DNA from: Triglochin maritima
Lineage: Eukaryota; Streptophyta; Magnoliopsida; Alismatales; Juncaginaceae
DNA: 64,000 nt
Assembly: GCA_963682175.1 (NCBI GenBank)
Contig: OY821772.1
Location: forward strand, 17,786,743-17,850,742
Reading direction: 5' to 3'
Positions 28,945 through 54,921 of the stretch are shown here, one piece after another; the stretch's first letter is position 1, and each line of letters begins with the position of its first letter. The translations under genes and the position numbers were made by a program. The notes below the pieces were generated by a model that was not told where the DNA came from, ran no database searches, and worked only from the letters and a program-made list of their open reading frames with translations.

Positions 28945-28949
28945 CCTAT

Positions 28950-29963
28950 GTTTGCAAGATTAATACACAAGTCTAAGGTTGAGTGGTTGTCAGTAATGTA
29001 CACGAGATAAATGTTCACGACTTTTATATATCGGATTCGAATTTTGCAAAACTCATATATTTATTCCCAAATTGCTTAATCAACTTCCTTATTTCCACTC
29101 CATATCCTCAATTTTCATTCCAATATATGCCTTAAAATGTTTTGCTCACTTTGATTTCATAATTTATTTTTCTATAGTTTATAGAAATTCATGTTTGTTG
29201 TTTAATTTATAGATGTCTTACTTAGATGCTTGTATTAATGAGATTACTTTGATTTACTTGTGTGGATATTACTTTCTTAAATTTTGTTTTTGGTTGTTTA
29301 AAGTAAGGGAGTCTTGCTGGTTGGTTGGGTACATTGTAATAGGAGGTGGTTCCTTGGCCAATTCCAACCTAGTTCTTGTTGATTTATACTTCCTTTTTAC
29401 CTATGTGGCTGAGAGATTACTCTATGAACAAGAGCATAGAAATGAAATAACTTGAGTGATCATATGAATTTTTGAAGGGTGAGAGTTTGAGTTTTCCAAG
29501 TATTAAACATTGATTGCTTAATTATGTCGAGATAGCACCGGGTATTTTGTTGTTCTTATGAACTTAAATTGATTTCTTTATGATTTGATTTATGTTGTTG
29601 GCGGGGAATTACTTTAACTATAACCTAAATAACCTCATGATTCTTAGTTCTATGATAAACCAATGTTGAGATATGTGGTGTTTCAAAATTTAAATCCTAT
29701 GAACTTTATGGAATTCATATTTTTGATGACAATTTGTGTTTTAAGAAGAAAATATACCAATTAAAGTTTTTATATGAGATTCCTACGAGATTGTGGTAAT
29801 TTTTTGGTTTTAACTATAAACCATCGTCGAGTTTCCAGGGTGATTTAAATAATTTATATTTCTACTACGATATGACAACAATTTTGGTTTGTATGAGAAT
29901 AATATAATTTTGAGAGTTGTGATAAATGACATTTTTGAGACACCTGAGGCCCCCACAAGTAGG
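28950..29963. other. AT-rich stretch with no recognisable gene
   Basis: A short open frame at 29213-29455 would encode a hydrophobic 80-residue peptide, but it has no recognisable motif and no coding context. I see no repeats or RNA genes. Confidence 0.45.
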
Positions 29964-29966
29964 TGA

Positions 29967-31104
29967 CACTACTACAGAAAAGGGAATATTCGTCGGATAT
30001 AAGGGCATATACACGTCGGATATAAGCACACCCCCATCCGACGTATATGTGTGCGTCGTCTATACATAGACGTCGGCCATCGTATAGCCGACGTCTATAC
30101 CTAACGAATAGACGTCGGCTGTAATTAGACGCCGACGTGTATTCTTTAATGTATAGACGTCGGTTAATAAACATACGACGCCTATACTTTAGGGATAGAC
30201 GTCGGGTTAATAATATACGACGCCTATACTTTAGGGATAGACGTCGGCTGACATAGAAAGCCGACGTCTATTCTTTTCTTCAGAGGATTAGACGTCGGCT
30301 TATATAAACAGCCGACGTCTATTCCCAAACCTGGACAAAAAAAAATAAATAGGATCCGACGAAATTGTTTTTAGTCATCGTCGTCGTGTACATACAACTG
30401 CACCAAATTCGTTCACCTATAAATTTCATCCACATACATCCATATACATCCCACATACAATTGAATACAAGCATACATCCACATACATCCACAAGAATAT
30501 GTTAGAGAAAGATGAACTTAAAACAAGAAAAAACGAACTTAAAACCTACATGTGGAGAGAGACGGAGGAAGACGGAGGAAGAAGGAGAAGAGGGCCGGAG
30601 AAGTGGAGGAGCGCTTGGGAGCTCGCTGCGGTGCCGGAGACGGTGCGGATCGGTCGGAGGATGGTCGCGGAGGAGAGTTCGGTCGCGGGACGGCTAGGGT
30701 TTGGGTGGGTTTCGACTGAAAAGAATGAAAGAAAACGCGTCTGTCCGATTTCTTTAAGACCTATATACGTCGGATTTTCCATAACACCGACGTCTATACC
30801 TCGACGTCTATGTGGATAGACTATAGACGTCGGTCTTACATTACGTCCGACGTCTATAGGCCGACGTCTATACCCTATAGACGTCGGATTCACAAGGTAC
30901 TAAAACACCGACGTCTAAAGGTCGACGTCTATACACTATAGACGTCGGCTAAACGTGTTATTCCAAAACCCGACGTCTATAGTGTCACATAGACGTCGGC
31001 TTCCATTTCAGCCGACGTCTATTCTGTCCTCTCCACAATAGACGTCGGCTGTTGTAACAGCCGACGTCTATTGTGCGACGAGTAAAGCCAATTCTGCACT
31101 AGTG
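29967..31104 (+). mobile_element. Non-autonomous CACTA (En/Spm) element with GACGTCGG subterminal repeats
   Basis: It begins CACTACTACAGAAAAGGG at 29967 and ends CAATTCTGCACTAGTG at 31104, so both ends carry the CACTA terminus followed by a related CTGCAGAA-type word. The 3-bp target duplication is TGA at 29964-29966 and 31105-31107. Many copies of TAGACGTCGG and its complement lie in the outer 350 bp at each side, the usual form of transposase-binding repeats in this superfamily. At 1138 bp it has no transposase. A purine-rich middle (about 30490-30720) gives chance frames only. Confidence 0.93.
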
Positions 31105-31107
31105 TGA

Positions 31108-32851
31108 TGGGGGGTGTAGTACCTATCCAAAGTAGTGGATATGGTGAGTCTAGAGTAGTGGACAAGATTTTCCAATACAAAGTAGTGTATATGGGGGAAA
31201 ATGGCTAGTCGTGATATTCTCCAAACATTATTCAGTAACGCCCTACATACGAGACATGGAGGGTCATCAATAGAGATCTTGACTTGGGATGTGACTGGAT
31301 TTGGGTGGTCTTTCACGTGGTAGTGTAGGAAAGGATGTCTCTCGGGGCATCTGAGATTGATTCGAACCGTATGAAGGGAAACTCTCACGTACAATTTGTT
31401 TTGAGGAGAAGGAGCCCAACAGGGTCCTAGAGCGTGCTAGCGCGATGTTACTGGCCGACTTTAGCCTTTGTGACCTAAACTATGACCATCAGCATACCTC
31501 ATCCTTCAGCTAACATCTCCTACTCCGCTTCATTCATTGTATCGATCTGACTATACATTGCTTCCTTAAGACAAACTTCTTATGTATCTTACCATCAGAG
31601 GTCAACCTTTCCTTTGGTATTTGAACCAACCCAATCAAGACCCAGAATGGGTACAATTGATCTCCCTCTTGAAACCCCTGTAAAGTAAACAACCATGGGC
31701 CAGTTTGATTTCCCAATCAAATAATAAGTCATACCCAGATAACCTTCGACAAAACTGGTCTACTCTAGAAGACGTATCAAGGAAGATCAGGACGGGCACA
31801 AGTATTTCATGGTCTTTGTTACTACATCCCGAAGTATATTGGCTTTGTCTTTATTTTACACTAAAATGTGTCCAATTGCTCAGGAGCTCGTGTAGAACCG
31901 TCAGATTTCTAGTGGGAAAGCAGCACAACCGAAAAAAGATGATCAGTTCCTCTACTACGTTTCCACGTAACTGGAAAGGGTTGCTTCCTTTAACACTCCT
32001 GAGAAGGCTATTCATAATCCAGTCTAGTAGGGATAGAGAGAATTTAGCCGTATGAGGCAGAATATCACGCCCCAACTCCTCAAGTAGGAAGTGTGTCAGC
32101 ACAAGTCACTAACTTCATCGAGTTGCTGGAACTTGATCAACATCTTCCCTCTCTCCCAACTTAGTTAGAATGCTAAATAGTGTATTCTCACACACGCAAA
32201 GGGACACTTGAGAGGTTTGCCCAATATGCGACTGTACTATTCACAAAGATTGATTTACTACACTTGTTTACAAATACACACATTGAGTGACTTAAACTCT
32301 TAGCCTATAGAGATCGAGTTCCACACTCATCAAGATTGAGTCATACCCACACCTTGCGTTTTTCTCTATATTTCAATGCTTTTCGAAAGAGCGGATGAGA
32401 CATCTTTATATATGAGAGGCTCCCTAGTACACAAAAGGAGTTTGTTCTTCTCCTTTATGTAGATCCCAACATTTGTCCCTACTTATAGTACACAAATGCA
32501 CTTCTACTTCCTTGGATATTTTAACTATACAACAAATATCACTCAAGTACCCAATATGTATTTGGTCTCAAGCTAGCAAATACGTAGTTTCTAAAATATT
32601 CTCACACATTCCATTTTTTGTCATATTAAGGAAGCAAAAGTTGTTTTGGAGTTATCGTTAGGAAGTCAAATTGTTTTTAACTTCTTCCTCTCCAATGGTT
32701 AGATATTTCTTTTAGGAATCAAAATTGATTTTGACTTCCTCATCCATCTTGGATTTTTCTTGAGGAAGTAAAGTATCATTTTGCTTCTTGATTTGGTAGG
32801 AGCGTTTCAGGAAGCTCCACGTACGGTTTTGCATCTCAACAACATACATGA
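31108..32851. other. Stretch with no confident gene
   Basis: Short frames on both strands give no clear family. A minus-strand reading near 32060-32000 and 31710-31640 (GPWLFTLQGFQ) is faintly like plant F-box/kelch proteins but too weak to call. The CCAAAGTAGTGGATATGG-like word is repeated near 31117, 31148 and 31180. Confidence 0.35.
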
Positions 32852-33229
32852 TTTTTTGGTGGGAAATGTTTTTTTGGCCACGGTGCGTCCGGGACACCGT
32901 CTGGTCAATCCAGTCAGCAGAAACCAAAGATTAATTAAATCACATATTATTTATTTATTTTGTGTCACATCACACGCACGCGGAACTATGTGACCTTTGG
33001 TTTCCAACATACATATATTCTCAAAACCTTCCATTATCCTCCCCAAAGCTTTCATTCTCTATCATTTTCCCCCGATGGAAGACGAGATCGGTAAGAGAGA
33101 TGTCGAGGAGATGACGCGGGAGTGAGTCTTAAGGAGGTTGGGACGCCGACGTCGTTGGTTAGGACGTCACGATGTAGTTGGTCGACGAGGAAGAGAAGGA
33201 AGTAATCGGCGTTGGAGTCTTTCTCGAGG

Positions 33230-33730
33230 CTAGGAGGAGGAGGAATGTGATTTTTTGTAGCTGATTTAAGTTTTTTGTATGATGTTTTTGGGGGAAAGTT
33301 TGGTTTTCGTAGCTGATTTGAAGTTTTTGGTTTTGTTATGTGATGGATTGGTCTTGGGTTTTTTTGAAAACGGGGTTCTTTGTAGCTGATTTGAGTTTTT
33401 TTGTGTTGCGTTTTTGCGGATGAGGAGGAATGTGGTTTTTTGTAGCTGATTTGAGTTTTTTGTGTGTTGTTTTTTTGGAGAAAGTTTGGTTTTTGTGGCT
33501 GATTTGAAGTTTTTGGTTTTGTTTTATGATTGATTGATCTTGATTTTTTTTGGAAGTGTGGTTTTTTGTAGCTGATTTGGGTTTTTTATGTAGAGTTTTT
33601 GAGGAAAAGTTTGTTTCTTTGTGGTTGATTTAAAGTTTTTGATTTTGTTATGTGATGAATCAATCTTGGTTTTTTGATGTTATTTTGAAAAAAAATTCTT
33701 TGTGGTGTTATTGTTTAAAGTTGGTTTCTT
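33230..33730. repeat. Degenerate tandem repeat, TTTGTAGCTGATTTGAGTTTT unit
   Basis: Words such as GTAGCTGATTTGAGTTTTTT and GTGGCTGATTTGAAGTTTTTG recur several times at roughly 60-130 bp spacing, with higher-order units containing GTTATGTGATGGATTGGTCTTG. The strand is strongly T- and G-rich. No protein is encoded. Confidence 0.75.
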
Positions 33731-33734
33731 TGTG

Positions 33735-34560
33735 GTTTGTTTAAAAAGGAACAAACATAACTTAAAAAAGAACAACAGAAAATTAAAAAGGATGAAACAA
33801 TACTTAAAAAGGAAAAACATGAACTTAAAAAGGATGAAGTAGTACCTAAAAAAGAACAACATAACTTAAAAAGGACGAAACAAAAATTAAAAAGGAAAAA
33901 CAAAAAATTAAAAAGGAAAAACAACAACTTAAAAAATAACAAATATAACTTAAAAATGAACAACAGAAAATTAAAAAGGAAAAAAACAGAAAATTAAATA
34001 GAAAAAACATCAACTTAAAAAGGAACAACGGAAAATTAAAAAGAAAAACAGAAAATTAAAAAGTAAAAACAACAACTTAAAAAGAAACAAACATAACTTA
34101 AAAAGAGACAACAGAAAAATAAAAAGGACGAAATAAAAATTAAAAAGGAAAAACAAAAAATTAAAAAGGAAAATGAACTTAAAAATGAACAAACATAACT
34201 TAAAAAGGAACAACAGAAAATTAAAAAAGAAAAACAGAAAATTAAAAAGTAAAAACATCAACTTAAAAAGGAACAACTGAAAATTAAAAAGTAAAACAAA
34301 AAATTAAAAAAGTAAAAACAAACTAAAAAAAACATAACTTAAAAATGAACAACAGAAAATTAAAAAGGAAAAATAGAAAATGAAAAATGAAACACAACAA
34401 CTTAAAAAGGAACAAACATAACTTAAAAAGGATGAAACAATACTTAAAAAGAGAAAACAAATCTTATGTTAAAAATGACAAAATCATACTTTAAAAGTTC
34501 AAACCGGTACTTAAAAATGAAAAACTCTTATGTTAAAAAGGACAGACGTAGATGTTAAAA
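33735..34560. repeat. AACTTAAAAAGGAACAA minisatellite
   Basis: About 800 bp of imperfect units built from ACTTAAAAAGGA, ACAACAGAAAATTAAAAAGG and AAAAACAAA-like words, with a period near 15-17 bp and higher-order pairs. The opposite strand gives long but meaningless F/L-rich frames. One strand is almost free of T-rich runs and C, so it is highly asymmetric. Confidence 0.85.
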
Positions 34561-34809
34561 ATGAACATATTTTGCCTTTTTAAGTTGTTATTTGGGGAAA
34601 CCAAAAGTTACGTTGGGAAAAATAAAAGTTGCATGCGGAAACCAAACGTTGCAGTGGGAAACTAATGTTACATTGAGAAACTAAAAGTTACATGTGACAC
34701 CAACATGTTATTAAATGAATTTCTCTGCTTACTGGATTACTGACTCAACTGACCACGTCAGCCGTGTCCGTAACGCGCGCGGCCGTATATAAAAACTCTT
34801 TTTTGGTGG

Positions 34810-36269
34810 TGCATGTGGGGACCAGAAAGCTCTGAGTCGGATCTAGTTATATTATATGAATTGATTTTGTATCAACCCAAATTCCACCTCCTTTGACATG
34901 CTTCCTCTTTTTTCCGCTTTCAGTCTCCAAGCGGTGAGGATCTGAAAGCAAAGATCAGATCGAAGTCTTCAGTATCCACTTGTAGCCATGAGGTGGAAGT
35001 CTTGGTCAAACTCTGAATCAATTTTTGATGAATTGTTTTATGAGAAGATTTTTCAGGACGTCTTTGGAAATGATTTTAAAATATCTGAGAATTTATTCTA
35101 ACAATGTTTCTGAATAATATGTAAAATGATTTTGAGGAGATTTTGAGAAATTTAGGGAAATCATTTCCGAGAAGAATTTGAGTATTTTATTTTTAAAGTT
35201 CTTATAATATATTTTATGCAGTGATGATATTTAAAATTTTCTTTGGTTCTTATGCGAATTATATTCAGAAACCAAACTTAACCAATAGGTGTAGCATACG
35301 GGACGAGTTGATAGCAAGAAAATTAGTACTTCCTACAAGGACGATCAACAGCGTTTGGTGTAGCACAATGATGAAGATTATGACACCGACTAAATTTTTA
35401 GATGAAATCCATGTTATTTTATGTCGTGTCGTTAAAGGTTGTAGCTTCACAAGTAAATGAAGCAGCTATTTTACGTACATTCGTAATGTTAAAATTAGTT
35501 ATTTACAAACAACGAAATCATGGCAGCAGTTTATCCTCTTCTAAGTCTATTCTTAACCAGAACGAAATCCTAGTAGCAATTTATCTTCTTCTAAGTCAAT
35601 TCTCAACTAGTACATAAATCACCTAAACAATTATATTTGGTTACGGACACTTCAACACAAATCACCTGATCTTAAGTCATATATCTTCAATGCATAAATA
35701 ACATAACATTTATCTTCAGTGCATAAATAACATGATCATATATGAGCGAAAAATTTACTAATTATTGTCATGATTTAAAAATTATGAACAAATTACTTAC
35801 AATTTTCATTACAATATAAACTGACAATCGTTCTCAAAATCTAAACGTGCACACTGGATCCTACAATACAAGGCATTACAATATCAACAAATTCACAGCA
35901 GTGCCGCCACTGCAAGGAGTTTTACATAATAACTCAAAACACTTATTTTTTTTTGACATAAATCCCAACATCATCTTGCTCGGGTCACATAAAATAAGGA
36001 AAATGATTAGTAGTCGCTGTTTAGGACGCTCGTTGAGGACGCTGCTGAGTTGGAGTGATCCATGTCAGCAAAACTTATAATCTTTTTTTTATTTTTTATT
36101 TTCACCTCCCGATGCGTTTCCAATCACATTAAATGCGTCTCAAATCAGTTCGTCCTCCCTCGTTTTGGCGCTCCTACGCAGGATACACATCTCATGGATT
36201 TTCTTCCTCCTTTTGTCTCCCTTTTGGCGCACTATCAACCATTTTCCTCCCTTCGTTCTTTGTACTCAA
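34810..36269. other. Upstream region of the FAR1-type transposase gene
   Basis: No conserved protein was recognised. Part of it probably belongs to the Mutator-type unit that starts near here, but I found no terminal inverted repeat pairing with the far side. ACGCTCGTTGAGGACGCTGC near 36028 and the C/T-rich tract at 36150-36260 precede the start codon at 36270. Confidence 0.4.
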
Positions 36270-39200
36270 ATGGAGGAGACCTCAAACGTTCCGAAGCAGC
36301 AGATGTTTTTCCGTTCTTTCGAAGACGCCAAAACATTTTACGTTGCCTATGCCGATTCATGTGGTTTTGGTGTTAAGATAAGGCAATCTCATTACGATCG
36401 TGGTGTTGTGATACGTGCCACACTGACTTGCTCCAAGGAGGGTCACGCTCCAGCAAACCAAGGAGAAGGGAAACTAAAGCATAGGTTATCCGGTAGGGTC
36501 CAGTGCACTGCTCGGATCAGGGTCTCTGGAAACCCAGCAAGAGGGTACCACATAAACTATGTTGATCTTCAACATAACCATGCCATGCTTGAGGACGATC
36601 AAATGCGTTTTCTCCGACAAAAACGAGTCGTCCCTGATGCCGCCAGAGCACGCATATCGTGCAATGATTCTGCTGGGATATCGGCTGCTAAGACCATGCA
36701 ATCTTTTGTGGTCGAGGCCGGAGGTCATGACAAATTGACTTTCAACGAGCGGGACCTAAGGTGTGTGTTATTTTTTGCGTAATTTAATTGAAGTTAAATA
36801 TTTTGCCCAGTCTTAAACATTGTTGTGTGCAGGAACGTTGTAAACGAAGTCAGAAATTTGAAGATGGGACCGGGCGATGCACAAACTCTTCAGAATTATT
36901 TCATCAGGATGCAGAAAATTGATTCTATGTTTTTTTATGTAATGAATATGGATGACGAAGGAAGACTACGAAACGTGTTCTGGGCTGACTGTCGTTCTAG
37001 AGTTGTGTACTCATACTTTGGAGACGCAATATGTTTCGACACAACCTACATTACCAACAAATACGACATGCCTTTTGCCCCATTTGTAGGAGTAAATCAC
37101 CATTTCGAATCGGTTTTGTTCGGTTGCGCTTTGCTGTCTTCTGAGACCACTAAAAATTACATCTGGTTGTTCCAAACTTGGTTGTCGTGCATGAACGGTA
37201 CGTATATACTTATTTAAGGTTCCGTGTCTGTCCGGTTTAAGTTGTACGTATGCCCGGAATAAGTTGTGGTTCTGTCCAGAATAAGTAATATGTATGTCCG
37301 GAATAAGGTCATTCTCTCTCTGGAATAAGATGTATGTATGTCCGGTTTAAGGTTTGAGTGTGTCCAGAATAAGTTCTGGTTGTATCCCGATAAAGTTGCT
37401 TGTCTGTCCGGAATAAGGTCCTCCTCTGTCCGGAATAAGACATATGTCTGTCCGAACTAAGATGTATGTCTGTCCGGATTAAGGTCCTTCTCTGTCCGGA
37501 ATAAGTAATATGTCTGTCCGGAATAAGGTCCTTCTCTGTCCGGAATAAGATGTATGTATGTCCGGTTTAAGGTTTGAGTGTGTCCAGAATAAGTTCTGGT
37601 CGTATCCCGATAAAGTTGCTTGTCTGTCCGGAATAAGGTCCTCCTCTGTCCGGAATAAGACATGTGTCTGTCCGGAATAAGATGTACGTCTGTCCGGATT
37701 AAGGTCCTTCTCTATCCGGAATAAGATGTATGTTAGTCCGGAATAAGGTCCTTCTCTGTCCGAAATAAGATGTATGTCTGTCCGGTTTAAGTTTTGAGTG
37801 TGTCCAGAATAAGTTCTGGTTCTATCCAGACAAAGTTGCTTGTCTGTCCGGAATAAGGTCCTCCTCTGTCCGGAATAAGACGTATGTCTGTCCGGAAGAA
37901 GTTCTGGGTGTGTCCGGAATACGGTTTGTTCGGAACAAGTTGGGTGTCTGTCCGGAACAAGTTGGGTGTCTGTCCGGAACAAGTTGGGTGTCTGTCCAGA
38001 ATAAGTTGGGTGTATGTCCAGAATAAGTTGTATGTCTGTCCGGATTAAGTCGTGTGTCTGTTCTGAATACTTTGTGGTTTTGTCCGTAATAAGTTGTGTT
38101 TGTCCAGATTAAGTTTTCAAAGTAGTTTTTCGTACCTTTGAATATATGACTCACTCATTTAAAATTGCCCCCGTCCATGCAGATATAAGTCCCCCAGCGA
38201 TCATAACAGATCGATGTGGCGCCATTACTGCTGCAGTGAGGAATGTCTTCCCAGACGCGAGGCACAGATTTTGTATATGCCACATAATGAACAAAGCTCC
38301 CGTGAAGTTGCCGACGCAGTATCGGAAACACATGCTATTTGATCTCAAATTGATTGTATTTGATTCCAAAACCCCATCAGAATTTGAGCGTAATTGGCAG
38401 GGGTTTCTTGGTGATTTTGACCTCCATAACCATAGTTGACTCCAATCGATTTATGCAATCTGAGGGTCCTGGATACCTGCATTTGTTGGAGATTGTTTCT
38501 TCGCAGGAATGGCATCTACTCAGAGAAGTGAGGGTATGAACGCCTTTTTCGACAAGTACCTGACATCTAAGACCACACTTACGCAGTTTGTTGGACAATA
38601 CGAACTCGCGCTCCGCCAGAAGTATGAGAAGGAAGCTCAATCCGATTTCGATTGTCTTCATAAGAGTCCCCAATTAGTTTCAATGTATTCGTTCGAGAGG
38701 CAGTTGAGCGAGTTGTATACGGTAGGGGTCTTCAAGAAAGTACAATTACAAATTGGGAAGATGATATACTCCGATATTACGGAGGAGTTCAATACGGGTG
38801 ACACATTCCATTACAAAGTATCTGAACGTGTATTATGTGGTGAGCAGCTACTGTCGAAACGTTTCCTAGTACAAATCAGATCTACGAACTTCACATGTGA
38901 TTGTAGAATGTTTCAGCACATTGGTCTTTTATGTTGCCACATTTTTGTTGTCATTGCACGCTTAGATCCTAATGCATTGCTCCCGGAGTCTTACATCATT
39001 AATCGATGGCGGAAGGATATTCGAAGGAGCCATCGAGAAAAGAGTTACCCAGAAGATGGCATAATGGAGAAGGATGCGCTTCGTCGTCACGACGACATAA
39101 TGGGTCGTCTCGTTTGGATCGCACAGGAAGCTTTCATTTCACACGCAAGGTATCTTGAGGCCGTTAAGTACATTGAATTTCTTAAGGTACGTATGCAAAG

Positions 39201-39477
39201 TACCCAACTCCCTATTGAACTTGCTGAACCTGGGACGACGGGTACATCTGTTCTCAATCCAGATAAGGTAAGACGTCCAGGAAGACCGCCGACTAGACGA
39301 CGAATTTCTTTAGCTGAGATGATAGTTAGAAGAAGCCATAAAAAGCACGACAAACAAGAAAAGAGAAAGTTCAAGGAGAAGGTTACATCGTCGTTGCACC
39401 CAGTCGCACCAAAACCGGGGGATGAAGATTTCGGTGATTGGGACATGAATCCGTATTACGATAAACTTCCTCCTTAA
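36270..39477 (+). pseudogene. FAR1/FRS-type MULE transposase, two in-frame stops
   Basis: The start is the ATG at 36270 (MEETSNVPKQQMFF); the frame opens further up only through non-ATG codons. Exons 36270-36760, 36833-37197 and 38183-39477 join in phase to 717 codons. The FAR1 DNA-binding (WRKY-GCM1-like) zinc finger spans about residues 15-115 (RSFEDAKTFYVAYA, TCSKEG, VQCTARIRV, HNH). The MULE transposase domain follows (ICFDTTY with the first Asp near 233, IITDRCGAI with the second near 295, a Glu near 354). Later come a SWIM finger (CDCRMFQHIGLLCCH) and a basic RRPGRPPTRRR. TGA codons at 38437-38439 (for Trp in HNHSWLQ) and 38461-38463 (for Arg before GSWIPAF) break exon 3. Both are explained by single transitions. 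Intron 2 (985 bp) consists mostly of tandem repeat. If repaired by nature it would be DNA-binding and catalytic; as it stands it is a very recent pseudogene. Confidence 0.92.
37215..38120. repeat. TGTCCGGAATAAG array inside the transposase intron
   Basis: About 900 bp of units near 24 bp long, each with TGTCCGGAATAAG or a variant (TGTCCGGTTTAAGG, TGTCCAGAATAAGTTCTGG), joined by short spacers such as GTCCTTCTC or ATGTATG. Longer higher-order units are visible (for example 37480-37660 closely repeats 37300-37480). The reverse strand gives long YSGQRRTLFRTD-like frames that are only translations of the repeat. It fills nearly the entire intron between codons for NG and DISPP. Confidence 0.92.
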
Positions 39478-39549
39478 TTTTAGATTTCCTGTTATTTTCC
39501 GTCTCTTGTAAAACTTATTAGTTGTGAAATGTGTTCCTTGTTTAAGTGG

Positions 39550-40275
39550 TTTAAGTGTCCGAATTACGTTCTGAATCTGTCCGGATTACGTTCTGCGTCT
39601 GTCCGGTTTAAGTGTTTTTTGTGTCCAGATTAAGTTCATGGTCTGTCCGGATTAAGGTTCTGTTATGTCCGGTTTACGTTTTGGATCTGTCCGGATTACG
39701 TTCTGCGTCTGTCCGGTTTAAGTGGATTTTGTGTCCAAATTTAGTACACGGTCTGTCCGGATTAATGTTCTGGTCTGTCCGGTTTACGTTCTGGATCTGT
39801 CCGGATTACGTTTTGGGTCTGTTCGGTTTAAGTGGATTTTTTGTCCAGATTAAGTTCACGGTCTGTCCGGATTAAGGTTGTGGTCTGTCCGGTTACGTTC
39901 TAGCTTGTACCAATTATGTTGTTCGTGTGTCCAGATTATGGTTCTAGTGTGTCCGGATTACGTTCAGGGTCTGTCCGATTTAAGTGTTTTTTGTGTCCAG
40001 ATTAAGTTCATGGTCTGTCCGGATTAAGGTTCTGGTCTGTCCGGTTTACGTTCTGGATCTGTCCGGATTACATTCTGCGTCTGTCCGGTTTAAGTGGATT
40101 TTTTGTCCAGATTAAGTTCACGGTCTGTCCGGATTAAGGTTGTAGTCTGTCCGGTTTACGTTCTAGCATGTACCAATTATGTTGCTCGTGTGTCCAGATT
40201 AGTTCAGGGTCTGTCCGGTTTAACTATTTTTTGTGTCCAGATTAAGTTCAGGGTCTGTCCGGATTACGTTCTTTT
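39550..40275. repeat. TGTCCGGATTA/GGTTTAAG array between the two genes
   Basis: The same repeat family as the intron array and in the same orientation, but with different spacers (CTGTCCGGATTACGTTCTG, CTGTCCGGTTTAAGTGGATT, TGTGTCCAGATTAAGTTCA). Larger units near 120-400 bp are repeated: 39605-39900 resembles 39985-40160. It starts about 75 bp after the transposase stop and lies downstream of both convergent genes. Confidence 0.9.
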
Positions 40276-40431
40276 TAAAGAAAACATTCCAAAAATGGAC
40301 TTTGTAATTTGTAATTTCCTATCTTTTAAAAAATAGAGTTTGTAATTACATCCTTTGTAATTCCCTATCTGTAAAAAATGAAGTTCGTAATTTGTACAGC
40401 TAAAAAAACATCACACTCCAGGAACTGGTGT

Positions 40432-42632
40432 TCAGATTTGCACACACAAACGGGGGTCCTTAAGCAACCAGAGCGCCAATTCGCCCCCGACAGAGTGAAT
40501 GACCTTCGGGTGCTTCTCCTTCGTTGGGTCAATATTTAGCATTAAGCACCTGATCCAGTATAAAACATACGCTCCACAATCGTTGCTCCCAGGTGATTGT
40601 CGTTGGCTTTGCTTCCGTAGGATTCTCAGTGGCCAATCAACCTTCAGTTTTTCCCTCCAGTATTTAGCCACCTCTGCTGATGCGCATTAATGTGCGCCAA
40701 CAAGGACGTCTGGATCTTCACCTCGATCTAGCACCCTAGACAAGCTGTTGAACTGCAGGAACTCCGCAGACGGGCCGTAGGCAACCACCAGATGCCAATG
40801 GCCTGCAGACCAGCATGGTTGTGCGATTACGGATTCTTTTGGAGACAATCCGTTAATTTTAGGGAGTACACAATCATCAATTGCTCCCCCTTGACCCTCC
40901 ACAATTCGTCCTGATTCGAATGCTGATATACATATAACCTTTCGGGCTTGTCGTCTTCCTTGGAGGACTGAAATCATCGCATCCATTGTTTCGTCGCTCA
41001 TATCCATCCCCGACGTTATTATTTCCTTCAAGTCGCGGCGTGTTAGACTACAGATGTCCCCTCTCCAGATCACCTCTGTCTGGTCCGTGCTTGGTGCGGT
41101 CAAGTTCAATAACACATTGACCTCATCAGCTGACAACGTCCCCAATGCGGCCATGTCAACATCAGGCCTCGTCGCCCCTAAGTGGACAACCAAGTTGTAA
41201 TTGTTGTCTTGTTTTTTCCCCTTTTTCGTTAGGCTCCTTTGGGCCACTCTGTCTTTTCTCTTTTGCTCCGCTTCCACCTTCTTCTTCTTAGCCCACTCTT
41301 CCTCATCTTTCCTCGAGCGTTGTCTTTTGACACCCCAGTTTGGTTTCTCCTCCTCTCTCTTCTTCTCCTCCCTCTTCCTCTCTTCTTCCTTCTCCTCCTC
41401 TCTCTTCTTCTCCTCCCTCTTCCTCTCTTCTTCCTTCTCCTCCTCTCTCCTCTTCTCCTCATTCCTCCTCTCTTCTTCCTTCTCCTCCTCTCTCCTCTTC
41501 ACCTCTCTCTTCCTCTCTTCTTCCTTCTCCTCCTCTCTCCTCTTCACCTCTCTCTTCCTCTCTTCTTCCTTCTCCTCCTCTCTCTCTTCACCTTCATCTT
41601 CCTCTCTTCTTCTTTCTCCTTCTCTCTCCTCTTCACCTCCCTCTTCCTCTCTTCTTCCTTCTCCTCCTCTCTCATCTTCTCCTCCCTCTTCCTCTCTTCT
41701 TCCTTCTCCTCCTCTCTCCTCTTCTCCTCCCTCTTCCTCTGTTCCGCATTCTCCTCCTCTCTCTTCTTCTCATCCCTCATCCTCTCTTCTTTCTTCTCCT
41801 CCTCTCTCTTCTTCTCCTCCCTCTTCCTCTCTTCTTCCTTCTCCTCCTCTCTCTTCTTCTCCTCCCTCTTCCTTTCTTCTTCCTTCTCCTCCTCTCTCCT
41901 CTTCTCATCCCTCTTCCTCTGTTCCGCATTCTCCGTCTGTCTCCTCTTTTCCACTCTCTTCCTTTCTTCTTCCTTTTCCTCCTCTTTTTTCCTCTGTTCC
42001 TCCTTCTCTTTCCTCTTCCTCTCCTTTTTTTTCTCCTCTTCCTTCTTCCTCTTTTCTGCCTTATGCTCTTCTCTCTTCCTCTCTTCTTCCTTCTCCTGCT
42101 CCTGATCCTCATCTATATTTACATATTGGGTCTTCTCCCCAATGTGAGTTTCACATGCCCCCATTCCTCGTAGAGACACAATCTCTTCGCTCAGCCTCCG
42201 ACACTCTTCGTGGGACATCCTTAGTTCTTCCTCCAGTCTGTTAACCTCTTCAGTCGCCTTCTTAAGGGCTGCTTCGGCTTGCAGCCATTTTGTCTTAACC
42301 TCACTCAGTTCCAACTCTTGTAGCAGCGGGTCCAATGGAATGCTGCAGTCTCTAAGTTGTAGCCTTGGCAGAGGGCATGTTGAAGCTGACCCCGTTGCTT
42401 TGTGCGACTCTTGAGCAAGATTTTGATCGGAAGTCATCAGTTTCCGTTCCCTTTCACTTAGTGATGGAGGCCCCTTCAGCTCGAATTTGCCGTTGTAAAT
42501 CTCGGCTAAGGTTATTCCACGTTCCTCCCATTTCCTCAGGGTTAAACGTTTCCCAAACATTTCCGTCCAACTTTTCGTCCGTGGATATGCTCGTCTGGGC
42601 TCCCCCAATTTGAATTTCTCACAAAGACACAC
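40432..42632 (-). pseudogene. Ulp1-like (C48) cysteine protease gene with a charged repeat domain
   Basis: The exon opens at about 42632 after a TTTGAAG acceptor (VCLCEKFKLGEPRRAYP). It continues through a coiled-coil segment (LELSEVKTKWLQAEAALKK, 42330-42200), a long K/R/E repeat (about 42100-41340), a basic linker (VKRQRSRKDEEEWAKKKK) and a protease domain. Catalytic-type motifs are GHWHLVV (His, about 40794-40814) and SNDCGAYVLYW (Cys after Q/N-D, about 40576). The usual Asp position reads FNSL, Asn instead of Asp. ISVLQGRR and CISAFESGRIV precede the domain. Breaks are a frame change in the charged repeat near 41584 and a TAA at 40687-40689 between VLVGAH and CASAEVAKYW. Ulp1 enzymes cleave SUMO from proteins, and transposon-borne members are known in plants. 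Earlier exons upstream of 42632 were not identified. Confidence 0.88.
41340..42100 (-). repeat. Coding minisatellite (EEKEEERKREEKKRE repeat)
   Basis: Units of about 60 bp (CTCCTCCCTCTTCCTCTCTT and TCTTCCTTCTCCTCCTCTCT on plus) recur more than ten times inside the Ulp1-like gene and encode alternating E- and K/R-rich helix sequence. The opposite strand has long S/L/P-rich open frames that are mirror artefacts. A frame change inside the array near 41584 fits slippage. Confidence 0.88.
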
Positions 42633-42689
42633 CTTCAAATGGGAAAGATTAAATGTTAATAAGCACTTCAAGACAGATAGACAAAAAAT

Positions 42690-43495
42690 TTATTCAAGAT
42701 AAAAGATCATACTATTCCGGACTGACAGACATCGTATTCTGGACAGACCTACGCCTGATTCCGGACAGCAACATAACGTATTCCGGACAGCCAAACATCT
42801 TATTCCGGACAGACCTACTCCTGATTCCGGACAACCAAACAACGTATTCCGGACAGACAAGAATCTTAATCTGGACAAAAGATCTTACTATTCCGGACAG
42901 ACAGACATCCTATTCCCGATAGACAATTTTTATTCAAGATAAAAGATCATACTATTCCGGACAGACAGACATCGTATTCTGGACAGACCTACGCCTGATT
43001 CCGAACAGCAACATAACGTATTCCGGATAGCCAAACATCTTATTCCGGACATACCTACTCCTGATTCCGGACAGCCAAACAACGTATTCCGGACAGACAA
43101 GAATCTTAATCCGGACAAAAGATCTTACTATTCCGGACAGACAGACATCCTATTCCCGATAGACAAATATTTTATTCAAGATAAAAGATCATACTATTCC
43201 GGACAGACAAACATCGTATTCTGGACAGACCTATGCCTGATTCCGGACAGAAACATAACGTATTCCGGACAACCAGACATCTTATTCCGGACATACCTAC
43301 TCCTGATTCCGGACAGCCAAACAACGTATTCCGGACAGACAAGAATCTTAATCCGGACAAAAGATCATACTATTCCGGATAGACAGACATCCTATTCTGG
43401 ACAGGCCTACGCCTCATTCCGGACAGCAACATAACGTATTCCGGACAGATATACATCTTATTCCGGACAGACAGACATCGTATTCCGGACATACA
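42690..43495. repeat. Reversed TCCGGACAGA array upstream of the Ulp1-like gene
   Basis: The repeat TATTCCGGACAGACA and variants occur in the opposite orientation to the two other arrays. They are organised as about three and a half copies of a 240-bp higher-order unit (boundaries near 42665, 42925 and 43165, each starting TTTATTCAAGATAAAAGATC). The array occupies the 5' side of the Ulp1-like exon, so relative to that gene it has the same orientation that the intron array has relative to the transposase gene. Confidence 0.92.
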
Positions 43496-43500
43496 CGACA

Positions 43501-45050
43501 CTGAATCGGTGTAGGTTTTTATCAGGAGCCCGAGTCGGACATCCCTTCCATTTCCTTTCTTCTCTAACACAACAAAACCTTAACTGTTGCTGACCCACGC
43601 CCGTCGCGCGCACCTCTGCTCGTCGCTCCACTGTCGTCTGTCGTCTCCTCCGTGCGCCTCCTCCTCGCCTGCACCTCCACGCTCGCCTCCTCTCTGGTAA
43701 CGCCTCACAGTACGGTCGACCCTCCTCCCCACCACCACCCTGACCTCCTCCTCCTCCCAAACGCCCTGACACTCCTCCCACCCACGTACGTACCCCACCT
43801 GCCCTGACCCTCCTTCCACCCGCGCACGTCCCCCACCTACCCCGACACGATCACCACCCTAATGCCCAACCCGACCCTAGCACCTCCATAATGCCTAACC
43901 CGAGCCCCTCATACCCAGCCTGACCCCCCACCCGACCCCAGTGCCTCATCCACCACCAAACCCTAGCCTGACCCCGCTCCACTACCAATCTGACCCACCA
44001 CAATGAAACCCCGACCACCACAACCCCACCTCCCCCACAGCCGCCTCACTTCCCCCTTTCCCCTTACACCACCACAAACCACTCCACACAGCCACCAAAA
44101 ACCACTATATACCACTCCAACAACTCACACAATTGTTTTTTTCGGAAATTTTTCTGATTTTTTTGAATCTTTTAATTTTTTTAATCGTAATCGTAATCGA
44201 TATATATATATATGTGTGAATATAAGTTGTATAATTTAATGTAGATTTTTATGATTAATTTGAAAGTTTATATGACTTAATGTTAAATTGAAATGAATGT
44301 CAAATTTATTGGTTTAGAAATTGTATTTTGTCGACAATTTGCTAGAAGTATATGATTCGAATTAGGTTGCATTTACATTTGAATGATTGATATAGATAAT
44401 TTGTATAGTTTAAACTAGATTAGTATGATTATTTTGAAATTTTATATGATTTAATGTTAGATTAAACTTAATATGAAGCTTAATTTGTTAGAATTTGCAT
44501 TACTAAAACAATGTATTGGATATATATGAAGTGTGTGATGTGTATGAAGTGATTGTGTATGCTATTGTTGTGAACCATACATATTGTTTTCTTGTCAATA
44601 CAAGATTAAAAAAAATTCAATATCAAAATTATAAGGGAGGTTCTGCCCAAATTCTTGTAAATTTTGGGTTTACGAATTGATTTAGGAATTGATTTAGGAA
44701 TCGTAAATTTTGGGTTTACTTTAGGATTATGGGTTTACTCTTGATTAGATTTTGGTTACAATTTAGATTTATGAATTGATATTAGATTTATGGATTGATA
44801 TTGGATTTGAGATTCGAGTTTGAATTTAAGATTTGAAATTGAACAACGTATTTGATTAGAATTTAGGATTTGATATTGGATTAAACAAAATGTATGTGCA
44901 AAAAGTGCAAGATTATTCAAGCACTTTTGTTGTGCCAAAAAAAGAGGGTGATGTTTATGTTTGACGAATTGAATGTTTGTCGTTTAAATAAATTTTGATG
45001 TGTTTGTGGTTTAGTAAATTGATTGGAATTTAAGATTTGAATTGAACTAC
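43501..45050. other. C-rich then AT-rich stretch with no confident gene
   Basis: From about 43600 to 44110 the plus strand is extremely C-rich (CCGACCCCAGTGCC and similar) and nearly free of G runs. From 44120 on it turns AT-rich with imperfect words such as TTTGGGTTTACGAATTGATT repeated near 44660-44720. A first exon of the Ulp1-like gene might lie near 43490-43560, but the reading has stops. No other feature is recognised. Confidence 0.45.
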
Positions 45051-45235
45051 GTTACACGAGTGCTCTGGAGCCCACACAGACAGACATGTGGATTAAACTC
45101 CACAACATTAACCATCTGGTAGCCGCTCAACTCATTGTAAGTTAATTACATGTATATTGATTTATAATTATTACTATGTTTCACGTTTCTATTGAAGTTT
45201 AACTCTTGAAATGTTTTATTTCAGCAACAGTTTGA

Positions 45236-45626
45236 GACTATGAGAGGATCAGGTGAGTTGAGCTCTCAGGGTTCTGTCACCTCGGTCGTTCCTGATGATC
45301 TGGTTGGCATCGTGTTGGGTGACAGACATAGACGGGTTCATATGTGTTCCAGTTATGTCATGCCTAAGGATATATACGGTGCTCGTGGGATGGCAAGCAT
45401 AGTAGAACGCACGTGGAGTGGAACAACGAAGCAACTGTGGAGTTGAAGCGTGTCAGCAGTGAGCACGCCATAACTCAAGATAAGCTGAAGATGGTGGAAT
45501 CCACGCTCAGTAAAATGCAGCTTCAAATGAACTTTTTGCTTGAGAAGGTAGGTTACATGAGCGAGGTATTCTCTACGTGTTGTTTGGTTAACTTTTTGCA
45601 TTTATTGGTTTATGTCAAATAATTTA
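45236..45626 (+). pseudogene. Ptta/En/Spm transposase C-terminal fragment
   Basis: After a TTTCAG acceptor the frame reads QQFETMRGSGELSS, then VVPDDLVGIVLGDRHRRVHM and YVMPKDIYGARG. These match in layout the VLGKxRxGRVRGxG block at the end of plant Ptta/En/Spm transposases. A frame change near 45400 leads to WNNEATVELKRVSSEH and a coiled segment (LKMVESTLSKMQLQMNFLLE), again as in that family. A preceding exon near 45055-45136 (TDMWIKLHNI) ends GTAAGTT. It is a non-functional remnant. Confidence 0.7.
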
Positions 45627-46020
45627 TATTGTTTATAACGTGCAGGATCATTACGTCACCCCTCTTTACACACCGCTACCACTGTCAAGACGAGATGACG
45701 ATCACATACCTACATGCGGAGCAGGGACGACAGGTTTTACGACTTGGTCGTTGCATTTTATATGTTTCTTTTATCATGTGTAAAATGAATGAATCAAACT
45801 CTTTTGTGAATCAAACTCATTTTTGAATGAAGGAATGTTTTATGAGTTGTTTAATTTGACTTGAGTTCTTGAATGGATGTGCGAATGGTTGTGTTGTTAT
45901 GAATGAATGGAAGACATTTGATTTTCTTTGAACAGGGAAAACTAGAATTTGGTAAAAGCCAAGAGACTCTTTTCGAATTTTGGGATGAGCGTACACTGAC
46001 GGATATCCGTCGGTGTATAC

Positions 46021-47525
46021 TGTGGGATCGAGAATACAACTTAGTTCTAATCACTTTTAAGCTTAAACCAACTCTACTTGCCTAATAATCAAAGATGTAG
46101 CGGAATTAAAAACAAAAACAAGTAAAAGAAGGAAATATGCAAACCACAAACGAAGACGGGAATTTTTATAGAGGTTCGGCTTCTGACGTACTTCCTCTCT
46201 TGTAAGCTCCGCTCGATCTCCCTTGAGCTCCGCTCACGACTTCACTAACCACTCCCTTTTTCGGGCCGGGAGAGAACACCTTTACAATCGTCAAACTCGC
46301 GAACAACCCTCGCCGAACTTGGCTCCTCCTCTCACAATCCAAGAGGGACGCTTTGGGCTTTCACTGAAACCTTTACTCGACTTTGACAGCAACAAACTTT
46401 AGTGGGACAATCACTCTCTAAACTTGAGCACACTTGAGAAAGATAAGAATTGATCTAAAGTGTGGAAATTGAGGCTTGAAGTGTTTGGAATGATCTCTCT
46501 AATGTAGGAGGCAAATATGTGTGGGAGAGTTCTGTGAAACGGTGTTAGACAAATCTCTTTATAAGCTCCTAAGGTGTTATAACCGTTGGGGTTAATTGGG
46601 TAAGTGTTTGTGTAAGATACACAAAATAGAAACCTACATGATGTAATTCTGAATATGTTCGGTGGACCGAATCGGGCAGAACGGTCGACCGTCGGGCAAT
46701 TTTGAACAAGGTTCGATCGACCGATAAAGGAATGGTCGACCGCGATAGGCTATAACTTAGGTACACTTAAGTTAATGGTCGAACACCGAATAGGGTTCGG
46801 TTGACCGAAAACTAACAGGCTCTACGGGGTTGGCAAAAAAGATCAAGTTCGGTCGACCGATCCAAAGTCTTCGGTCGACCGGAAACTTCCAGGAAGCTTC
46901 ACACTTTGGAGACAATTAAGTTCGGTCGACCGAAGCAGGTCCACGGTCAACCGATAGTCAATTTGTATTATGGGGTATTTGTGAATAATTCGAACACGAC
47001 CGTTGGTATAATACGACAACCCTAACGATCAGAAAACTATGTTGTTTCGGTTGACCAAAAAGGTCAGAATGGTCGACCGAATGTGGGCAGTCTAAGACAT
47101 TATAGGATAATTGATCACTCAGTCGACCGAAAGGCTTGGGTCGGTCGACCAAATGTGGGCAGACAGTTTTGGTCTAGTTTTAGTGTTTTCCGGTCTAAGT
47201 TTGGGTGATCTATTGAAGTCCAATTGGTGTGAAATTTTGTGTGTGACTTCTATAGGGAACCTAGTGTGTATGTGAGTTGATTTTAGTTCAAGTATGCTCA
47301 ATTTACACAATGTTCCTAAGACTCAAAAGAAATGCAAATTACATGTTTTCAAATGAGCTTGATTACATGTCTTGACTTGAATCCTTTATTCCTTGAGTCT
47401 TGATCACCTGTAGATGTTAGCACAAAGCAATATATATGCTATGCAATATGTGTGCTACTCTATATTGCAATTAAGATTAGGTTGATTAAATCATCAAAAC
47501 ATAGATTAAGGCCAAAAGGCCAACA
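46021..47525 (+). mobile_element. Solo LTR, TGTxGGATCG family, with TATAC target duplication
   Basis: It starts TGTGGGATCG and ends AAGGCCAAAAGGCCAACA (1505 bp), with TATAC at 46016-46020 and 47526-47530. Removing it restores CGGTGTATACGTCGTTC in the CACTA subterminal repeats. A TATA-like CTCTTTATAAGCTCC lies near 46554. A stretch with seven GGTCGACC words follows (46682-47150). No internal coding region is present, so it is an LTR left by recombination. Confidence 0.9.
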
Positions 47526-47953
47526 TATACGTCGTTCACTTTTCAGTACACCGTCGGATATCTGTCGATGTATATCTTTGATACTTTCACTGGCGGTAGG
47601 TATCCGTCGGTATATATTCTCATTCGTCGGATAACATCCTACAAATTTCTTTGTCGGTGTAGCTACACCGACGGACCCGTCCGTCGGACTAGTACACTGA
47701 TGGTGTATCCGTCGATGTATATCTGTCGGTGCTATCCACCCGACGAAAACAACAACCAAACAATTGGGGAGGGGGGAATTGGTGCCAAAACTATTCCGAC
47801 AGTGGTCATCTGCCGATGCTTCTGTCGGTGAAACTGTACACCGACGCCTTCAAGTCTGACAGATGAGTTTCCGTTGGTATATGGTATCATCGATTGATAC
47901 GTATATACACCGATGGATATTGTCCGTCGGTGAATCCTAGTTCTCCTATATTG

Positions 47954-48518
47954 TCATTTGGTGAAAATGACCCAGGTCGTTGGTGCGTTCCGTACAGGAC
48001 TGGTGCGTCCTAGCTCGTTTTCTGTTACCTCAAATCAGTAGTCTTCCATGTTCTTTATGAACCCATTAGGTTCCTAATTTATAAATTTCTTAAATATGAA
48101 AGTTTTGGGTCTCAAAAGATTCTTTGCAATGGGTCTTGAATTGCCTTATTTGGATATCAAAGGAGAGAGTTATGTACAAATTATTAATGATTTGTCGATT
48201 GTCCAGTTTCCAAATACGATGTCTTGACACATATTTTTCATCCTCGTATCATCAGAAATTGGCAAGTTGTAAGCGAATCAAATAAGTGCTCCTTAAAATT
48301 TTCTTTCCAACAATTTGGAATCATCAAATTTTGTATTTGGATGTAGATGTTATGAATAAAATGACCCCACTCGTTTGGTCAAATGACCCAACTTGTTTGG
48401 TGAAAACGACCTAGGTTGTTTGGTAATTTTTAAAACTCGTTTATCTTCATTCAATGTGTTTGTATAACAAGTTGGTTTGTCTCGTCTTAATGTTCGTGTG
48501 CATTCAAGTTGACATGTA
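47954..48518. repeat. Repeat block shared with 53905-54425 (direct)
   Basis: The order of words is the same in both blocks: GACCCAGGTCGTT...GACTGGTGCGTCC, CTCAAATCAGTAGTCTTCCA, CTCATTAGGTTCCTAAT-like, GTCGATTGTCCAGTTTCCAA, TCATCGTATCATCGGAA-like and ATGTTATGAATAAAATGACCC. They are imperfect direct copies of roughly 500 bp, about 5.9 kb apart. I do not recognise the family. Confidence 0.75.
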
Positions 48519-48523
48519 ACAAG

Positions 48524-49868
48524 TGTAGGATCGTGTGGGTCAGGTTAATCTAATCACTTTTACGTTAATCCCTAACTAATCAAACAATAAACGCAGCAGA
48601 AACAATTTAAAGACTAGTAGGGAAAGGAACAAGCAAACCACAAATTGACTCGGCGTTTTTATAGAGGTTCGGCACCCCACCCGGGTCCTAGTCCTCTCTT
48701 GCAAGCTTCGCTCGACTCCGCGAGCTCCGCCTACGACTTCACTATCCGCTCCCCGTTCCGGGCCGGGAGACAACGCCTTACAACCGTCAAACTCGCGAAC
48801 AACCCTCGCCGAGCTTGGAATCCTCTTCTCACAATCCGAGAAGGATCACTTCGGGCTTTCACCGAAGTCTATACTCTTTTGACAACCTTTGTAACTGAGT
48901 GAGATTCACTCTCTAATTGAGCACACTTTGAGTAGGATGAGTGATTGATCAAGTGTGTGTAGTTTAGGCTTATGTAGTGTAGAAATGTGAGCTTTGAGGA
49001 TTGAGGTTTCTCTCTAATGTATTGGGACAATTGGAGTTGGAGAGTTGTGTGTAAAACTGAGTTTGATCCTCTATTTATAAGCTCTAAGAGATTCCTAGCC
49101 GTTGGGGAAAGATTTGATTGATTTGTGTAAGAGATACACAAAACAGAATTCAAATTCAGCAAAAACTGTCTCCAACCGGTCGACCTAAAGTGGAACCGGT
49201 CGAACAGAACCTTACAAAAACTAATGGATCGGTTGAACAAATGGATGGTTCGGTCGAACGGTTGGGAATAGTGTTATGCGTATATGACCGTTGTATGAAT
49301 ACGACAAAATAAAACGGTCACATGAAAACCCGGAACGGTCGAACAAAATGGCAAAACCGGTCGGCCGTTTAGTCTGGGCAAAACACTACTGAAATCGGTT
49401 GAACTATGAGGCAAATCGGTTGAACAAAAATGGTCATGTAAAAACTCTAAATCTACTGAAACCGGTCGAACAAAAGGTCCAATCGGTCGAACGTTTTCGG
49501 ACGGGATTTAAGGTTTAGTTTTAGTGATTTTCCGACTATGTTTTGGATGACCTATCGAAGTCCGATTGATCTGAAATTTTGTGTGTGACTTCTCTAAGGA
49601 ACCTAGTGTGTGAATGCATGGATATTAGCTTAAGTTATGCTCAATTCACATATGTTCCTAAGACTCAAAGAAAAGTAAAATACATGTCTTCAATCCAGCT
49701 TGATTACATGTCTTGACTTGATTTTTCTTCTTTCTTGAGTCTTGATCACCTGTAGATGTAAGCAAAATACAACATATATACCATTATACTACATGTGCTA
49801 ATCTACATGTCCTAATTAAGATTAGGTTGAATTACATCATCAAAATATGGATGAAGGCCAAAAATCCA
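48524..49868 (+). mobile_element. LTR of the TGTxGGATCG family
   Basis: It starts TGTAGGATCG and runs to AAGGCCAAAAATCCA, followed by ACA. ACAAG stands at 48519-48523 and again at 49869-49873. This is a target duplication if the LTR ends at 49868, although the family end CCAACA would overlap it by three bases. A TATA-like CTATTTATAAGCTC lies near 49072. Its downstream stretch has one GGTCGACC and many GGTCGAAC variants, so the palindrome has largely decayed or never formed here. Confidence 0.8.
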
Positions 49869-52800: not shown

Positions 52801-53300
52801 TTTTCCATCACAAGTTATGTATAACCAACTAATACATTTACCACTATACACATTGATAGTTTTTGATAATAATCAAATCATACACTCCTTATATGAAAAG
52901 ATATAAGTCTCATATCTTAGGATTCAAAGACACAATGAAACATTAATGACACAAACACAATTCCATAATGTTTCATTTGTTAGGTCAATTCAATATATGA
53001 AAGAAATATTTTCTATTTCATATACTCATGTTGTTAAATATTTGTAGAGCTACAATATCTCTTTTAACCAACACGACAATCTTAACTCGGCAATTAATGT
53101 CTCATGTTAATTACCATGATTATGAATTACTTTTGATTTATGTAAACCATTATCTTCTAGAGCTCTACGGTTAAGGACCAAAAGTCTCTTCCTTAACACT
53201 TCCAAAAGACGAATACATTAATCAAAGAACAAAATGTTCAATACATTCAATTCATAATAAAAGTCATTTAAAAGTAAATTTTTTAGAACACATTACTTTC
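49869..53300. repeat. Nest of inverted LTR-like sequences
   Basis: No gene is visible. 49980-50115 is a reversed fragment of the TGTxGGATCG-family LTR (TGTGTATCTTACACA and CTTTCCCAACGACTAT mirror its R region). 50105-50290 is the reverse complement of about 51560-51750. 50570-51000 (TATA-like CCTATTTATAGGAC, then GTCCTTAACCGTAGAGCTCTA) is the reverse complement of about 52920-53330. GGTCGACC words occur in both arms (51091 and 51154; 52008 and 52109). The arrangement suggests two or more LTR-like units inserted head to head, followed by divergence. Confidence 0.6.
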
Positions 53301-53903: not shown

Positions 53904-53904
53904 A

Positions 53905-54749: not shown

Positions 54750-54921
54750 TCACGCTGTGGCCTCTCTCATCCTCACGGCCTTACCTCTCCACCCTCAAAT
54801 CGCTCCCACCCTCAACGTCGAACCCTAATCCCCTTTTTCCACTCTTCCCCCCATTCGAATCCGACGATCTCAAATCAGGAGCAGGGATTCGTCTTCTTCC
54901 TCAAAATTTCGCCGACAATTG
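54750..54921 (+). other. Likely 5' UTR exon of the Rgp1-like gene
   Basis: A C/T-rich stretch of the kind common in plant leaders (CTCTCCACCCTCAAATCGCTC, CCCTAATCCCC, TCGTCTTCTTCCTC) ends CGACAATTG followed by GTATGG at 54922. That is a plausible donor for the 1.57-kb intron ending TTATGTTGCAG at 56489. The transcription start is a guess. Confidence 0.55.

What the first reader, a model, noticed from the sequence alone, without database searches (positions are those of the whole stretch)
36270..43500. FAR1-type transposase and Ulp1-like protease linked by three arrays of one TCCGGA repeat
A transposase gene and a SUMO-protease-like gene face each other. The same roughly 24-bp repeat (core TGTCCGGAATAAG) fills the transposase intron, the space between the genes and the region upstream of the protease gene. 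MULEs with Ulp1-like genes are known (Kaonashi type), but I know of no description of such repeat arrays tying the two genes together. Arrays could be transposase-binding sites, as subterminal repeats are in CACTA elements. Each array has the same orientation relative to its gene, which would fit a shared control.
Basis: partly seen in the sequence, partly recalled or inferred. Interest (0 to 1): 0.85.

Follow-up and report, generated by a model that had tools for sequence, protein, structure and literature searches.

The report
Jumping gene with likely anti-silencing arrays
A decayed plant jumping gene carries three arrays of one short DNA motif in its non-coding parts, laid out like the landing sites that some Arabidopsis jumping genes use to avoid being switched off, but in a different branch of the family.

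Summary
Three arrays of one 22-bp repeat (13-bp core TGTCCGGAATAAG plus a looser 9-bp spacer) lie in the transposase intron, between the two convergent genes, and 5' of the Ulp1-like gene. All 85 core hits (up to 2 mismatches) in the 64-kb window fall inside the arrays, each array on one strand. The core is kept and the spacer is not, even between duplicated blocks (mismatches 44/611 against 80/423), so the arrays look like protein-binding sites rather than plain satellite. The element is a FAR1+MULE+SWIM (Jittery-like) MULE with a convergent Ulp1-like gene; both genes are broken in this copy. I think this works like that system, with the Ulp1-gene product as likeliest binder. It is not filed as a VANDAL: the transposase is FAR1-type and no DUF1985 was found. 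No second copy of the element's DNA could be read, so recurrence is untested.

The parts
36270..36760 (+). Transposase exon 1, FAR1 DNA-binding domain
   Evidence: PF03101 E 3e-16; donor GT at 36761
36833..37197 (+). Transposase exon 2, first part of the MULE domain
   Evidence: PF10551 E 3.9e-16; donor GT at 37198
37198..38182 (+). Intron 2 of the transposase, 985 bp, filled by array A
   Evidence: GT..AG; gapless protein alignment over the junction
37225..38115 (+). Array A of the 22-bp repeat; 37 core hits at up to 2 mismatches
38183..39477 (+). Transposase exon 3: rest of the MULE domain and SWIM zinc finger; two in-frame stops at 38437-38439 and 38461-38463
   Evidence: PF10551 E 1.1e-9 and PF04434 E 7.6e-5; stops; relative aligned on the far side of the stops
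39556..40272 (+). Array B of the 22-bp repeat, between the convergent genes; 18 core hits at up to 2 mismatches
40432..42689 (-). Readable part of the accessory gene: conserved N-terminal part, Lys/Glu/Arg repeat, Ulp1-like C-terminus; one in-frame stop (40687-40689) and a frame change between 41544 and 41769. The true 5' end of the exon is not settled
   Evidence: PF02902 E 0.001 below cut-off; relative P0121
41345..42083 (-). 45-bp coding repeat (15 residues) inside the accessory gene
42713..43500 (-). Array C of the 22-bp repeat, 5' of the readable accessory gene (promoter, leader or first intron, not settled); 30 core hits at up to 2 mismatches

Best explanation
This is a decayed plant MULE with a FAR1-type (Jittery-like) transposase and a convergent accessory gene whose product has a conserved N-terminal part, a long charged repeat and a Ulp1-like C-terminus. 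The three arrays are clustered binding sites for a protein that the element itself encodes, most likely the accessory protein. By analogy with VANC, many bound copies in the intron, the intergenic DNA and the 5' region would keep silencing marks off the element and keep both genes expressed, which ties the two genes into one self-supporting unit. Shown here: the anatomy, the restriction to non-coding DNA, one strand per array, and constraint on the core but not the spacer. Inferred: protein binding (I put this alone near 0.8), which protein binds, and the anti-silencing outcome.
For: 0 of 85 core hits lie outside the arrays and each array is on one strand, as described for VANC21 motifs in introns, intergenic and terminal non-coding DNA (PMC5735166). 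In 73 phased units the 13 core columns average 1.48 bits and the 9 spacer columns 0.56; between duplicated blocks core sites differ at 44 of 611, spacer sites at 80 of 423, and of 22 frames the core frame is the least changed. Neutral simulations with the same picking gave a spacer/core ratio of 1.06 (sd 0.24); 1 of 1942 reached the observed 2.63. The accessory protein has a long tandem peptide repeat, and VANC proteins are described with variable regions of tandem peptide motifs. No clear terminal inverted repeat was found, as in many VANDALs. Ulp1-bearing VANC genes are reported in a review passage.
Against: No DUF1985, the domain marked in VANC proteins, was found. The Ulp1 match is below Pfam's cut-off. 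Published VANC motifs are nearly absent from the arrays: one VANC6 AC-type match in A, no VANC21 or VANC6 CC-type match in any array. No codon-position bias between the units of the coding repeat. One spacer column (21) is also conserved at 1.35 bits, so the bound site may not be exactly the 13-bp core. No binding, expression or methylation data, and no second copy of the element.
Confidence: 0.5

Rival explanations
1. The arrays are binding sites for the FAR1-type transposase itself, used for transposition or self-regulation, as subterminal repeats are in CACTA elements.
For: The element encodes a FAR1 DNA-binding domain (E 3e-16), and the same core conservation would be expected.
Against: Array A lies deep in an intron and B between the genes; the element's ends are unknown, so closeness to the ends cannot be judged. 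The FHY3/FAR1 site CACGCGC (recalled) does not occur in either orientation between 33000 and 47000, though a transposase need not share it.
Confidence: 0.15
2. The arrays are ordinary cis-regulatory clusters bound by a host transcription factor that drives both genes.
For: Core conservation, and A and C are each in sense with the gene they sit in or beside.
Against: 85 core hits are far more than a usual enhancer holds, and array B lies downstream of both genes.
Confidence: 0.12
3. The arrays are neutral tandem repeats that spread within the element by slippage and copying, with no bound protein.
For: Higher-order copies show active slippage; A and B share a weak five-unit order, permutation p 0.02.
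Against: Neutral growth predicts equal change in core and spacer; observed 44/611 against 80/423, reached in 1 of 1942 neutral simulations. A-C and B-C share no such five-unit order (p 0.97 and 0.96).
Confidence: 0.12
4. The arrays mainly feed small-RNA silencing: A and C are inverted relative to each other and a read-through transcript could fold back.
For: Inverted pairs of up to 293 nt at 71% complementarity between A and C; RNA-directed DNA methylation targets the non-coding regions of VANDALs (PMC10398659 abstract).
Against: 71% pairing is imperfect, and this does not explain why the core alone is kept.
Confidence: 0.06

Closest known systems
VANDAL21 and VANDAL6 MULEs with VANC anti-silencing proteins (Arabidopsis; PMC5735166, PMC10398659)
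   Same: Short element-specific motif in same-orientation tandem arrays in introns and intergenic DNA; accessory protein with tandem peptide repeats; no clear terminal inverted repeat.
   Different: Here the transposase is FAR1-type, no DUF1985 was found, and the motif differs. Binding and loss of methylation are shown for VANC, not here.
Kaonashi (KIU) MULEs and Ulp1-bearing VANC genes (PMC13317346, PMC6117577, PMC2528002, passages)
   Same: A Ulp1-like gene in reverse orientation to the transposase.
   Different: Kaonashi elements have a mudrA-type transposase; the Ulp1 match here is below Pfam's cut-off.
Jittery-like MULEs, including melon and grapevine families with ULP sequence (PMC6446971, PMC2528002, passages)
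   Same: FAR1 at the N-terminus and SWIM at the C-terminus of the transposase; ULP sequence downstream of the transposase in some families.
   Different: The passages that I saw describe no motif arrays; 'tandem' does not occur in the grapevine paper.
CACTA elements with subterminal repeats (recalled)
   Same: Many copies of a short element-specific motif.
   Different: CACTA repeats lie near both ends (recalled); here the arrays are in an intron, between genes and 5' of a gene.

Membership tests
Jittery-type (FAR1) MULE | FAR1 domain at the N-terminus, MULE domain, SWIM or CCHC at the C-terminus | tested here: met
   PF03101, PF10551 and PF04434 all above their cut-offs; feature list from PMC6446971 table passage
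Jittery-type (FAR1) MULE | Transposase falls in the Jittery clade of a tree | not tested
   No tree was built; best hits are plant FAR1-related proteins at about 45% identity (120 of 490 listed)
Jittery-type (FAR1) MULE | Terminal inverted repeats and 8-9 bp target duplication | tested here: inconclusive
   None convincing in the flanks searched; the table passage lists members without inverted repeats
VANDAL / VANC system | Short motifs in dense same-orientation tandem arrays confined to non-coding DNA of the element | tested here: met
   85 of 85 core hits in three one-strand arrays in non-coding DNA; feature from PMC5735166
VANDAL / VANC system | Accessory protein with DUF1985 | tested here: not met
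   No DUF1985 in the readable accessory gene or in seven - strand fragments 5' of it; the N-terminal exons are not resolved
VANDAL / VANC system | VANDAL-clade transposase (VANA) | tested here: inconclusive
   The transposase has an N-terminal FAR1 domain, not listed for VANDAL in the table passage; no tree was built
VANDAL / VANC system | Accessory protein binds the motif and removes DNA methylation | not testable with these tools
   Needs binding and methylation data
Kaonashi (KIU) MULE | Ulp1 (C48) protease domain | tested here: inconclusive
   PF02902 E 0.001, 19.4 bits against a cut-off of 20.7; P0121 E 0.005, 17.1 bits; GHW and NDCG motifs shared by both proteins, their reading as catalytic His and Cys is recalled
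Kaonashi (KIU) MULE | ULP gene in reverse orientation to the transposase | tested here: met
   Transposase on +, accessory gene on -
Kaonashi (KIU) MULE | mudrA-type transposase | tested here: not met
   FAR1-type transposase; mudrA stated for Kaonashi in PMC2528002

The most novel reading that the evidence does not exclude
Sequence-specific anti-silencing by motif arrays arose or was acquired a second time, in FAR1/Jittery-type MULEs, with a DUF1985-free, charged-repeat plus Ulp1-like protein as the array-binding factor; the module of arrays plus accessory gene is then portable between MULE branches.
Probability: 0.3. Interest if true: 0.75.

Novelty: new variant of a known kind. Interest (0 to 1): 0.55.

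Why it matters
How VANC proteins remove silencing after binding is called open in PMC5735166 (discussion), and the function of the Ulp1 domain in these elements is called unknown in PMC13317346 (passage). An element with the arrays and a Ulp1-like gene, but with no DUF1985 found and a different transposase, would let one ask which part of the accessory protein is essential, and would show that such self-protecting modules are shared across MULE branches. It also offers a short defined site for a binding test.

Tried and rejected
Element ends: inverted-repeat listing, BLAST of 28000-36400 against 43400-56000, and a paired search for 8-10 bp direct repeats with terminal complementarity (left 34800-36240, right 43520-47500) gave only weak, mostly A/T-rich pairs. 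A 77% match between 34593-34790 and 9711-9894 looks like another repeat, not an end of this element. Relatives of the accessory protein: one protein, P0121, at E up to 0.01 among 1806 candidates; a search from P0121 returned only itself among 1071 candidates. Structure: the model from two sequences had mean pLDDT 38, so no fold search was run. Solved structures: none at E up to 1 for the single sequence; with a two-row profile the best was cysteine protease S273R near the NDCG motif, E 0.61, not significant, the second a serine hydroxymethyltransferase, E 1. NCBIfam gave nothing useful. Viral contigs hold no exact match to the pattern of one full core plus the next core's start. Mismatches between units of the coding repeat at codon positions 1, 2, 3 were 22%, 20%, 24%: no sign of coding constraint there. 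My first reading of the transposase lesion as a frameshift was wrong; one search shows two in-frame stops.

Literature limits: Sasaki et al. 2022 and Fu et al. 2013 are not held, so the most relevant paper on Ulp1-bearing VANDALs was seen only through a review passage. That no FAR1-type MULE with such arrays is in print rests only on the searches. Recalled, from no call: CACTA repeat layout, the FHY3 site, the roles of the catalytic residues.
Full report
What is there. The window holds a plant MULE-type element that spans at least 36.27 to 43.5 kb. The transposase is on the + strand in three exons: FAR1, a MULE domain split by an intron, and a SWIM finger. The 985-bp second intron (37198-38182, GT..AG) is filled by array A, and the protein on both sides aligns without a gap over the junction to a relative. 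The best relatives of the transposase are plant FAR1-related proteins and unnamed metagenome proteins at about 45% identity (120 of 490 hits were listed). The second gene is on the - strand. Its readable product has an N-terminal part that matches P0121 (64 of 118 residues identical), a Lys/Glu/Arg repeat of 15-residue units and a Ulp1-like C-terminus (PF02902 at E 0.001, below the curated cut-off). P0121, 669 residues from a 4146-bp contig, shares that layout and was the only relative at E up to 0.01 among 1806 candidates; a search from P0121 found only itself among 1071. Both genes are broken in this copy: two in-frame stops in transposase exon 3, and one in-frame stop plus a frame change in the other gene.

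The arrays. A, B and C cover 37225-38115, 39556-40272 and 42713-43500. The unit is 22 bp, not about 24. Core hits at up to 2 mismatches number 85, with 1.16 expected: 37, 18 and 30 in A, B and C, none elsewhere, each array on one strand; at up to 3 mismatches 10 scattered hits appear outside. A is sense to the transposase, C sense to the protease gene, and B sense to the transposase and antisense to the protease gene. Whether C lies in a promoter, a leader or a first intron is not settled.

Why they look like binding sites. I took the longest uninterrupted phased run of each array (32, 15 and 26 units: 73 of the 107 units found at up to 4 mismatches, or slightly degenerate ones within the runs). 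Thirteen adjacent columns average 1.48 bits and the other nine 0.56; a contiguous block that good arose in 0.065% of column permutations. One spacer column (21) is also high, at 1.35 bits, so the true site may extend past the 13-bp core. Between arrays, core identity is 0.75-0.81 and spacer identity 0.39-0.45. Between higher-order copies within arrays (lags of 10, 5 and 11 units, 47 pairs), core sites differ at 44 of 611 and spacer sites at 80 of 423, and of 22 possible frames the core frame is the least changed. The pairs are not independent, so the Fisher value of 1.8e-8 overstates the certainty. Because units were picked by core similarity, I simulated neutral arrays under the same picking, with divergence values that I chose: the spacer/core ratio was 1.06 (sd 0.24), and 1 of 1942 runs reached the observed 2.63 (58 of 2000 runs were dropped by a preset filter). 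A and B share a weak five-unit order (p 0.02); A-C and B-C do not.

What it works like. Hosaka et al. 2017 (PMC5735166; results and discussion read) report that VANC21 binds a nine-base motif arrayed in one orientation at high density in introns, intergenic and terminal non-coding DNA of VANDAL21, that the targets evolve by tandem repeat formation, and that VANC proteins have variable regions with tandem peptide motifs; VANC6 uses other motifs. Sasaki et al. 2023 (PMC10398659; abstract, introduction and passages) add that RNA-directed DNA methylation attacks the same regions. A 2026 review (PMC13317346; passages) states that some VANDALs carry a VANC gene with a captured Ulp1 domain (KIU) and act on motifs in other such VANDALs. 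A grapevine survey (PMC2528002; passages and one section) reports ULP sequence in some Jittery-like MULEs. A MULE survey (PMC6446971; passages) lists FAR1 at the N-terminus and SWIM or CCHC at the C-terminus for the plant Jittery subgroup. Each ingredient is thus known; the combination of FAR1-type transposase, Ulp1-like gene and arrays was not found in the searches.

What it is not shown to be. DUF1985 was not found in the readable gene or in the fragments tested 5' of it, although the N-terminal exons are unresolved. The transposase is FAR1-type, not the mudrA type stated for Kaonashi elements. Of the published VANC motifs, one VANC6 AC-type match lies in array A and no VANC21 or VANC6 CC-type match lies in any array. 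So I file it as a Jittery-like MULE that probably works like a VANC system, not as a VANDAL or a Kaonashi element.

Limits. No plant genome could be searched: the own-genome search did not complete in seven tries. The element's ends are unknown. The structure model is unusable. All function is inferred from anatomy and precedent.

Noticed in passing
11695-13269 and 17513-19087: Two direct copies of 1575 bp that are 100% identical, probably the two LTRs of a young retrotransposon; the 523-residue ORF between them (14321-15889) has no Pfam match above a cut-off.
   Followed up: partly
22004-23217, - strand: Two overlapping ORFs match the plant mobile domain PMD (PF10536, E 4.5e-23 and 8.9e-42), one with a weak DUF1985 match (E 0.0058, below cut-off).
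   Followed up: partly
33741-34466: Another tandem array, A-rich, period about 21 bp (TTAAAAAGGAAAAACAAAAC), unrelated in sequence to the 22-bp repeat.
   Followed up: no
9711-9894 and 34593-34790: Two copies of a short region with degenerate 20-bp repeats, 77% alike.
   Followed up: partly
12061-12102, 17879-17920, 24468-24508: Two-copy 21-bp repeats built on GACCGCCAATTGGCGGTC, itself a palindrome, in three places.
   Followed up: no
716-1273, + strand: ORF with a retroviral-polymerase SH3-like domain (PF25597, E 1.2e-20), a retrotransposon remnant.
   Followed up: no
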